Positions 671 through 38,646 of a stretch of 64,000 nt of DNA are shown piece after piece (positions within the stretch are counted from its first letter, which is position 1; each line of letters opens with the position of its first letter). The notes under the pieces were generated by a model. It ran no database searches and was not told the DNA's origin. It worked only from the letters and a program-made list of their open reading frames with translations. Origin of the DNA: Promineifilum sp. (lineage in GTDB: Bacteria; Chloroflexota; Anaerolineae; Promineifilales; Promineifilaceae); the NCBI GenBank assembly GCA_018058545.1, contig JAGOZU010000003.1:1-64000 (forward strand). Direction: 5' to 3'. The position numbers were made by a program, and so were the translations under genes.

Positions 671-870
671 TGGCGTAGTGGCGGGACATCCGGGGCTATG
701 GTTTATGCCTGGCGGGATGCGTTGGCCACCGGGGGACTGTCCTAAATTGTGTGTAAACAGTTGTTCTCGATGGCAAGCCCATCATAGCTCAACCCGTCCC
801 TCAATCCAGCAACCGGTCGATTGGAGCAGGGCAATCGCATACTCCGCTGCTGCTGATGGATGTTGCAGGT

Positions 871-1078
871 AAACAAATTAATGCGCTATAGGGGTAGGGG
901 CGAGGCAGCTGCGAAATTATCACCGTTTGGCAGAACCAACCGCATTCGCAGCTGCCTCGCCCTCTTCGCAGAAGGGTCAGGCAACCGGGAGAAGAGTCAG
1001 CTGCGGGTTTGGAACCCGCACGCATGGGGCGATATGCCAATCTGAACCGAGTATGCGGTTGCCCTGGGTGCATACGGG
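871..1078 (-). repeat. dispersed hairpin element, copy 1 (decayed, inverted)
   Basis: Starts with AAACAAATTAAT, a variant of the family terminal repeat. It has the longest hairpin of the family: 898-915 (GGGCGAGGCAGC then TGCGAA) pairs perfectly over 18 bp with 945-962. It continues with the shared words CTCTTCG and GGTCAGGCAACCGGG at about 963-985. Compared with copy 3 at 38423-38615 it is in reverse orientation. The second half is degraded: the right arm of the GTCAGGCAACCGGG hairpin survives only as GCGGTTGCC near 1056, and no terminal repeat is left. A small extra hairpin TGCGGGTT/AACCCGCA lies near 1003-1021. Confidence 0.75.
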
Positions 1079-1146: not shown

Positions 1147-1554
1147 ATGCAGTCGGTGACCGTTCAGCTACCTGATAGCCTCTACCAGCGCATGCGCCGG
1201 CTGGCGCGCGAGCGAAATAGCTCGATCGAGGAAGAGGTTGCGCAAGCGGTGGAGCAGGCTCTTGCCGACAACATGTCTCCCACCACGGCCGAATTGTTGG
1301 CCCAACTTCCCCATCTGTCTGACCCCGACTTGTGGCAAGCTGCCCGGATGTTCGTCGCGGCCGACAAGGCTGAGCGGATGCAGGCCCTTGTATGGAAAGA
1401 GCAAGCCGAAGGGCTGACGACCGCCGAACAGGATGAAGCGGCACAACTCCAGAGCTACGCACAGCGATGTATGCTGCTGCGCGGCGAGGCGGCGGCGCTC
1501 CTGGCCGAGCGCGGATACAACGTTGACGAGTTGATCGTTCCGACCGGCGAATGA
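1147..1554 (+). CDS. ribbon-helix-helix antitoxin-like protein
   Basis: 135 residues. The start is an ATG preceded by AAAGGAGATGCACC, a strong ribosome binding site. The N-terminus (SVTVQLPDSLYQRMRRLARE, residues 3-22) has the short strand plus amphipathic helix of CopG/Arc-type ribbon-helix-helix DNA-binding proteins. A second helix follows, SIEEEVAQAVEQALA. The remaining 90 residues are helical and acidic and I do not recognise them. The stop overlaps the start of the HNH nuclease gene as ATGA, so the two are translationally coupled. The arrangement resembles a toxin-antitoxin operon with the DNA-binding partner first. A purely regulatory or structural role is equally possible. Confidence 0.75.
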   Translation: MQSVTVQLPDSLYQRMRRLARERNSSIEEEVAQAVEQALADNMSPTTAELLAQLPHLSDPDLWQAARMFVAADKAERMQALVWKEQAEGLTTAEQDEAAQLQSYAQRCMLLRGEAAALLAERGYNVDELIVPTGE

Positions 1555-22403: not shown

Positions 22404-22503
22404 GTACACCCCGTATGTCTCTGCGGATTGCGGGGAGATGATACCACAGGTCGTGCGCCCGGATTAGTGTCGATCAAGGATCGGCGGGCGGGCTATTGCA
22501 TAT

Positions 22504-22629
22504 TTACAAATCAATCAAGGATGTGCCGTAGGGGTCAGGCAACCGGGCAATTATCTGCATGGAAACGCGCGACCTCCAAACCCGGTTGCCTGACCCTTCT
22601 GAGAAGCCCTATACCGCATTAATTTGTAA
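22504..22629 (+). repeat. dispersed hairpin element, copy 2 (short form)
   Basis: 126 bp with terminal inverted repeats TTACAAATCAAT (22504-22515) and ATTAATTTGTAA (ending 22629), one mismatch. Inside, GGGTCAGGCAACCGGG (22532-22547) pairs perfectly over 16 bp with 22581-22596. It shares the flanking words CAAGGATGTGCCGTA and CCGCATTAATTTGTA with copy 3 but lacks the second hairpin. There is no open reading frame of note. It fills most of the 319-bp gap between the cyclase and dehydrogenase genes; the rest holds only the terminator at 22686. Confidence 0.85.
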
Positions 22630-22685
22630 CAGTCCAAAAGCCTCATGGCCGTTGGGGAACGGCCGCGTGGCGATGGTTTGTTAAC

Positions 22686-38319: not shown

Positions 38320-38422
38320 ACAGATCAACCTGCATCATAGCAATGGCCGGATGCACAGGCAAACCTGCTCACTGGCGATTAAGCCCGGAGGCGACGCGCG
38401 GCCGCGAAAATGACATAACCTT

Positions 38423-38615
38423 TTACAAATTAATCAAGGATGTGCCGTATGGGTTAGACAACCGGGAAATCATCTCCGTGGAAACGGGCGACGTCGCTTC
38501 CCGGTTGCCTGACCTTTCTTCGAAGAGGGCGAGGCAGCGGGGAATTAGGGTGGTTCTGCGAAACGATGATGATTTCGCCGCTGCCTCGCCCCTACCGCTT
38601 CCGCATTAATTTGTA
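38423..38615 (+). repeat. dispersed hairpin element, copy 3 (full two-hairpin form)
   Basis: 193 bp with inner terminal repeat TTACAAATTAAT (38423-38434) and ATTAATTTGTA (to 38615). Hairpin A: GGTTAGACAACCGGG (38452-38466) against CCCGGTTGCCTGACC (38500-38514), 2 mismatches. Hairpin B: GGGCGAGGCAGCGG (38527-38540) against 38578-38591, 14 bp perfect. An outer inverted repeat TGACATAA (38411-38418) / TTATGTCA (38627-38634) may extend it. The 327-bp gap between the TPR and glycosyltransferase genes holds nothing else I can name. Confidence 0.9.
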
Positions 38616-38646
38616 TACCTGAAAAATTATGTCAATTCGAGCTGCG

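What the first reader, a model, noticed from the sequence alone, without database searches (positions are those of the whole stretch)
38411..38634. Undescribed non-coding dispersed element with two long hairpins and terminal repeats TTACAAATTAAT
Directly visible: 38423-38615 has inverted termini (TTACAAATTAAT / ATTAATTTGTA), a possible outer repeat TGACATAA/TTATGTCA, and two strong stems (GTCAGGCAACCGGG type and GGGCGAGGCAGC type). Two more copies exist in this window at 22504-22629 and 871-1078, all intergenic. There is no ORF, so this is a MITE- or REP-like family moved by an enzyme encoded elsewhere, or a family of structured RNAs.
Basis: seen in the sequence. Interest (0 to 1): 0.72.

Follow-up and report, generated by a model that had tools for sequence, protein, structure and literature searches.

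The report
Hairpin-tip-inserting non-coding mobile element (MITE)
A short gene-free piece of jumping DNA, present about 36 times in this uncultured bacterium, appears to land exactly at the tip of DNA hairpins without copying any target bases, and is probably moved by a branch of the IS630 transposase family, whose described members land at TA and duplicate it.

Summary
The 38411-38634 element belongs to a dispersed family (36 loci, a lower bound) with ends TTGSATATTTACAAATTAATC...GCATTAATTTGTTTACCTGCAA around one or two long hairpins. The outer repeat TGACATAA/TTATGTCA is the split target, not the element. In 19 two-ended copies the bases outside the ends are inverted repeats that differ from locus to locus (permutation p<=1e-4), with no direct duplication. 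A same-genus genome holds uninterrupted targets: sites predicted for insertion without duplication match 30, 30, 5, 2 and 2 intact copies for five of seven events; the 2-bp model matches none of seven. The same end core bounds an IS630-type transposase gene (NF033545, 153.6 bits) in same-genus genomes. Homologues across the class carry related ends and locus-specific palindromic flanks (29 of 40 positions against 18.4 expected, p=5e-5, 10 elements). Best reading: a MITE of an IS630-like clade that inserts at the exact centre of hairpins with no target duplication, carrying REPIN-like hairpins as cargo. No autonomous partner was found in this assembly, so present mobility here is unproven; nothing was tested at the bench.

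The parts
38411..38418 (+). left arm of the split target palindrome (TGACATAA)
   Evidence: complementary to 38627-38634; this class of flank is locus-specific
38419..38435 (+). left terminal inverted repeat, shortened by about 6 bases here (CCTTTTACAAATTAATC)
38447..38514 (+). hairpin 1 with GTAG-like head (GTATGGGTTAGACAACCGGG ... CCCGGTTGCCTGACC)
   Evidence: stems kept across 35 cores
38526..38595 (+). hairpin 2, inverted head CCCCTAC at its right foot (GGGCGAGGCAGCGG ... CCGCTGCCTCGCCCCTAC)
38603..38624 (+). right terminal inverted repeat (GCATTAATTTGTATACCTGAAA; outermost bases approximate)
38627..38634 (+). right arm of the split target palindrome (TTATGTCA)
22490..22495 (+). left half of the split target of the short copy (GGGCTA)
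   Evidence: predicted empty site GGGCTA|AAGCC
22496..22637 (+). short form of the element: left TIR TTGCATATTTACAAATCAATC, hairpin 1 (22528-22596), right TIR GCATTAATTTGTAACAGTCCAA; hairpin 2 absent
22638..22642 (+). right half of the split target of the short copy (AAGCC)
863..991 (-). one-ended copy on the minus strand: right TIR TTGCAGGTAAACAAATTAATGCGC (863-886), hairpin 2 (894-962), remnant of hairpin 1 (973-991)

Best explanation
A non-autonomous mobile element (MITE) of an IS630-like transposase clade. An enzyme of that clade binds the ends (TTGnA..TTwACAAAwTAAT), excises the element and joins it to the exact dyad centre of a palindromic hairpin whose tip reads T-N^N-A, without duplicating or losing target bases, so that the two target arms end up flanking the element. 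Shown here: the family, its shared ends, locus-specific inverted flanks, duplication-free junctions against intact targets in a sister genome, and full-length IS630-type elements with the same end core and junctions. Inferred: that this enzyme moves the non-coding copies, that the target is recognised as an extruded hairpin or cruciform rather than as a double-stranded palindrome, and that the GTAGGGG...CCCCTAC double hairpin is REPIN-like cargo carried inside the ends.
For: 36 loci in G000. Left flank versus reverse complement of right flank, 19 two-ended copies: identity .68/.74/.68/.53/.53/.47 at positions 12-17 against .28/.39/.41/.24/.28/.30 for mismatched pairs, p<=1e-4. Empty sites in G001: 30 for copy 583351 and 12 for copy 340168, aligned across the junction; exact 16-mers 30, 30, 5, 2, 2, 0, 0 for the duplication-free model and 0 in all seven for the 2-bp model. 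In G000 the junction of the C93 copy, GCGGGATG^AATCC, equals an intact GCGGGATGAATCC hairpin in the same locus. Three IS630-type elements in G001:C2 have ACAAATwAATC in their ends and sit at hairpin centres; Pfam DDE_3 82.4 bits, NCBIfam transpos_IS630 153.6 bits against cut-off 100. G003 and G007 also carry such ends. Class-wide: 15 of 396 genomes with homologues at E<=1e-30; 10 two-ended elements give 29 of 40 matches against 18.4, p=5e-5; G220 has 26-base arms. G228 transposase loci have ends such as TTGCAACTTAACAAAATAATCCCGATATAG, very like this MITE's right end.
Against: No autonomous partner in G000: its only DDE_3 gene (C57:4869) has unrelated ends; the assembly is in 185 contigs at 97.93% completeness, so an IS could be missing. 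No orthologous empty locus was found for about six G000 copies, and one search found no second copy of the G000 empty sites in the own sequence held. Two of seven G001 events (340168, 707102) have no exact empty 16-mer. The terminal dinucleotides TA, AT and TT/AA differ among relatives, and the G001 IS630 ends TA..TA would by themselves also fit a classical TA duplication. Two of ten class-wide elements (L239, L244) show little or no flanking palindrome. Control DDE_3 elements are not perfectly clean: 18 of 42, p=0.008 at window 6, mostly one element.
Confidence: 0.74

Rival explanations
1. REPIN/BIME: the double hairpin is a REP doublet moved by a RAYT (Y1 tyrosine transposase) acting on single-stranded hairpins; the outer ends are incidental.
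For: GTAG heads in inverted orientation on the two hairpins; core copies without the outer ends and tandem arrays in G001, G004 and G005; RAYT-like genes in G000 and 6 of 7 sister genomes.
Against: Hairpin loops of about 35 bases against 2-4 in described REPs (passages); none of the 12 RAYT loci examined has a GTAGGGG-type hairpin of this family in the flanks held, while at least three have their own REP-like repeats; G004 has many cores but no Y1 match; the outer ends are conserved and shared with IS630-type elements.
Confidence: 0.12
2. Structured RNA or regulatory hairpin family kept by selection, not mobile.
For: Stems kept: 1037 of 1050 cells are standard pairs over 30 pairs and 35 cores, 5 pairs with changes on both sides.
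Against: Copies sit at unrelated loci, break other dispersed hairpins precisely, and vary in cargo (hairpin 1 only, hairpin 2 only, swapped hairpins); no Rfam match. Palindromes may also need to stay paired for DNA-level reasons.
Confidence: 0.06
3. The flanking palindromes are variable outer parts of the element's own inverted repeats, so nothing is known of the target.
For: They are contiguous with the inverted repeats.
Against: They differ at each locus and, for five of seven G001 events, rejoin into sequences found intact elsewhere in the same contig.
Confidence: 0.05

Closest known systems
IS630/Tc1/mariner family and its MITEs
   Same: Transposase is IS630 by NCBIfam and DDE_3 by Pfam; about 1.2 kb elements with inverted ends; non-coding relatives with the same end core.
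   Different: Described members integrate strictly at TA with a 2-bp stagger (PMC5481204, passages; PMC2170065, passages). Here no duplication, and the target is a hairpin centre.
REPIN / BIME and RAYT systems
   Same: Two GTAG-headed hairpins in inverted orientation, intergenic, sometimes tandem.
   Different: Long loops, outer inverted repeats shared with IS630-type elements, no linked RAYT.
Insertion sequences that target REPs (ISRm22, IS621, IS1397, ISPpu9/10)
   Same: Insertion into REP palindromes, for ISRm22 just at the palindromy axis (PMC1525189, passages).
   Different: ISRm22 copies have direct repeats per that text; other transposase families; they recognise one REP type, whereas here arms of unrelated sequence are used.
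Double-hairpin elements of fungal mitochondria
   Same: Short mobile double hairpins (search listing only).
   Different: Organellar; compared only from the listing and recall.
Spy eukaryotic transposons without target duplication
   Same: Duplication-free insertion at a symmetric site (recalled, not read).
   Different: Eukaryotic, other superfamily (recalled).

Membership tests
IS630-family MITE | ends shared with an IS630-family element | tested here: met
   ACAAAwTAAT core in IS630-type elements of G001, G003, G007 and other families; not in G000 itself
IS630-family MITE | parent transposase falls in IS630 family | tested here: met
IS630-family MITE | TA target duplication | tested here: not met
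   MITE ends are TT..AA, and the 2-bp model finds 0 empty sites in 7 of 7 events. So it is filed as derived from an IS630-like clade, not as a classical member.
IS630-family MITE | autonomous partner in the same genome | tested here: not met
   incomplete assembly
REPIN/REP | GTAG (or GTGG) head followed by palindrome | tested here: met
REPIN/REP | palindrome interrupted by 2-4 bases only | tested here: not met
   loops about 35 bases
REPIN/REP | cognate RAYT flanked by the same repeat | tested here: not met
   12 RAYT loci
Rfam structured RNA | match to a known family | tested here: not met
Hairpin-centre insertion | recognition of extruded hairpin rather than duplex palindrome | not testable with these tools
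   needs biochemistry

The most novel reading that the evidence does not exclude
A group of IS630/Tc1/mariner-type transposases, spread over many families of this bacterial class, has abandoned the TA target and its 2-bp duplication: it inserts itself and its MITEs blunt at the tip of palindromes or hairpins of arbitrary sequence (T-N^N-A centre), apparently reading DNA shape or symmetry rather than sequence.
Probability: 0.6. Interest if true: 0.78.

Novelty: new variant of a known kind. Interest (0 to 1): 0.64.

Why it matters
TA targeting with a 2-bp stagger is described as strict for the IS630/Tc1/mariner superfamily. A natural group that integrates without duplication at hairpin centres would be a structural counter-example, a possible duplication-free and largely gene-sparing integration tool, and an explanation for how nested hairpin repeats build up between genes. 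It also makes testable whether bacterial cruciforms or lagging-strand hairpins are used as targets in living cells.

Tried and rejected
Rejected: RAYT-moved REPIN as the whole explanation; structured RNA; IS110 parent: the 1.44-kb G001 copy holds an IS110-family gene, but that is an insertion into the right foot of the core, since the MITE ends lie outside it. Direct duplications were scanned for k=5,6,8,9 at offsets 0 to 24 and nothing stood out. A looser test allowing shifts (longest common stretch) was not significant: p=0.10 at shift up to 3, 0.07 at shift up to 8, against 0.001 at shift 0, so the signal is position-locked. Empty sites for the 19 G000 copies: none spanning in the own sequence held; three short chance-level hits for one copy in G001. 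Orthologous empty loci for about six G000 copies: none. Other hairpin-centre occupants on G001:C2 were sought by listing 31 of 63 right arms without an adjacent left arm; most of the 31 look like chance matches in genes, six are occupied or broken sites. Of the 16 class-wide loci outside G001, seven (L237, L238, L241, L243, L247, L248, L249) had no two usable flanks and were left out of the test; nine plus the G007 locus L225 were used. Since elements were found through their inverted repeats, that test may lean towards longer arms. L225 is probably a recombinant of two copies. The tree does not make the hairpin-centre transposases a single clean branch (2 changes, weak backbone), so clade is used loosely. 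The reading of a flipped 30-bp middle between the two inverted G001 IS630 copies is inference, and events a and b depend on it.

Full report
What was checked. The window element is present as described: two inverted end words, two long hairpins, and an outer TGACATAA/TTATGTCA pair. The second copy (22504-22629) has both ends and only hairpin 1. The third (871-1078) is a one-ended partial copy, about 863-991, on the other strand. In the whole genome (G000, 3,595,251 bases, 185 contigs, 97.93% complete) the full element gives 42 match rows; after removing 5 reverse self-matches and joining one split locus, 36 loci remain (40 of 64 candidates were scored). ACAAATTAAT occurs 27 times against 3 for the control word. 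The two full window copies lie between genes with Pfam support: a TPR protein and a family-2 glycosyltransferase, and a cyclase/TPR protein and a glutamate-type dehydrogenase.

Anatomy. Copies laid side by side read TTGSATATTTACAAATTAATCAAGGGTACCGTAGGGG - hairpin 1 - linker - hairpin 2 - CCCCTACCCCTATACCGCATTAATTTGTTTACCTGCAA. Cargo varies inside the same ends: both hairpins, hairpin 1 alone, or hairpin 1 with a short GTAGGGGCGGGTTTGAAACCCGCCCCTAC palindrome. Across 35 cores from G000 and sister genomes, 1037 of 1050 stem cells form standard pairs and 5 of 30 pairs show changes on both sides, while loops drift. The core without the outer ends also occurs, sometimes in tandem, in sister genomes.

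Who has it. Of 40 genomes searched (G000 and 39 relatives), 5 have matches, G000 included, all of one genus. A 20-base head of hairpin 1 scanned over the genome-contig collection (84,980 species) gave 17 stretches from four MAGs titled Anaerolineae, Ardenticatenia or Chloroflexi (near records of the window may be left out there). Two of these coincide in coordinates with G004 and G005.

Flanks are split palindromes. For 19 of the 36 copies, those with both ends recognisable, anchored only on the end word, the left flank was compared with the reverse complement of the right flank. Positions 12-17 outside the anchor agree at .68.74.68.53.53.47, against .28.39.41.24.28.30 when flanks of different copies are paired; permutation p is 1e-4 or less. 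The base next to the end (position 10) does not agree. No direct duplication stands out. In the window copy the left end has lost about six bases, so its palindrome is out of register and did not help the test.

Empty sites. Contig C2 of sister genome G001 (1,004,044 bases, fetched whole) is full of dispersed hairpins such as CGGCGGGTTCAAACCCGCCG. Removing the element from the copy at 583351 gives a sequence that aligns across the junction with 30 places (best 94% over 71 columns); the copy at 340168 gives 12. For seven insertion events, exact 16-base sites predicted without duplication occur 30, 0, 30, 0, 5, 2 and 2 times; with a 2-bp duplication, 0 in every case. Loops of 48 intact hairpins of the first kind are mostly TCAA (17) and TGAA (12). 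In G000 itself the C93 copy splits GCGGGATG^AATCC next to an intact GCGGGATGAATCC hairpin, and G002 has a similar uninterrupted stretch (78.75% over 80 columns).

The enzyme. On G001:C2 three nearly identical elements of about 1.18 kb with ends TAGGACATTAACAAATwAATC sit at hairpin centres. Their gene matches Pfam DDE_3 (82.4 bits) and NCBIfam transpos_IS630 (153.6 bits, cut-off 100). One non-coding G001 copy combines these ends with a GTAGGGG hairpin (C2:200683), which links the two. G003 and G007 hold related elements with ACAAATTAAT ends. Over 396 genomes of the class, 15 have homologues at E<=1e-30. Ten elements with two usable ends show palindromic flanks: 29 of 40 positions agree against 18.4 expected, p=5e-5; seven other DDE_3 elements give 11 of 28, p=0.16, though 18 of 42, p=0.008, in a wider window, mostly through one element. 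One homologue has 26-base arms of a terminator-like hairpin. Two transposase loci in G228 carry ends very like this MITE's. A tree separates these transposases from most other DDE_3 genes but does not make them one clean branch.

Limits. G000 has one DDE_3 gene, with unrelated ends, so the partner is gone, unassembled or elsewhere. Zero duplication in G001 rests on five events with exact empty sites, two of which require undoing an inferred inversion of 30 bases. Whether the target is an extruded hairpin or a duplex palindrome cannot be told from sequence.

Against what is known. Papers were seen as passages unless noted. The IS630/Tc1/mariner family is described as integrating strictly at TA with a 2-bp stagger (PMC5481204), and IS630 and ISY100 as leaving 2-bp duplications (PMC2170065). 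Insertion at the axis of REP palindromes is known for other families, for example ISRm22 with direct repeats (PMC1525189). REPs are described with a GT(A/G)G head and 2-4 unpaired bases (PMC2817692). PMC4853749 describes MITEs with TATA ends and long hairpins, without such targeting in the passages seen. REPINs (PMC3116915) were seen only in a search listing. Searches for IS630 with palindromic or duplication-free insertion showed no such report among the titles and abstracts listed (open-licence library only; Tenzen et al. 1990 was not held). Recalled only: Shigella IS630's own preference for palindromic surroundings, and Spy transposons without duplication.

Verdict. New variant of a known kind: a MITE of an IS630-like group with duplication-free, hairpin-centred insertion, carrying REPIN-like hairpins.

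Noticed in passing
L127:13500-14780 (G001:C2:583500-584780): An IS110-family gene (Pfam Transposase_20 and DEDD_Tnp_IS110) is inserted into the right foot CCCCT^AC of one copy; its non-coding stretch holds CTCGCCCCTAGGGGTAGCTACACC, which may be the target-reading part of a bridge RNA (inference).
   Followed up: partly
L087 and L088 (G000:C110 and C156): Two RAYT-like Y1 transposase genes (214 aa each), each surrounded by its own GTAG-headed repeat (GTAGCGCAGCCATTCCTGGCTG; GTAGCTCAAGCTGTTAGCTTGAG).
   Followed up: partly
G001:C2:266511-268904: Two IS630-type copies in inverted orientation 30 bases apart; the middle looks flipped by recombination between them.
   Followed up: partly
G001:C2:336248 and 707102: A second non-coding family with ends ATGCGTTTTG..CAAAACGCAT and other hairpins inside, at the same hairpin centres.
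   Followed up: partly
G001:C2, e.g. 916061-916130: A composite dispersed repeat of two hairpins (CGGCGGGTTCAAACCCGCCG and AAACCGGCTAAAGCCGGTT) recurs many times; its origin was not studied.
   Followed up: no
G000:C57:4869-5315 (L234): Lone IS630-type gene of G000 with ends AATACWCYGTAACTTAAAWAAT, of a different branch.
   Followed up: partly
window 1147-1554: Small ORF with a sub-threshold match to a FitA-like antitoxin domain next to the partial copy.
   Followed up: no
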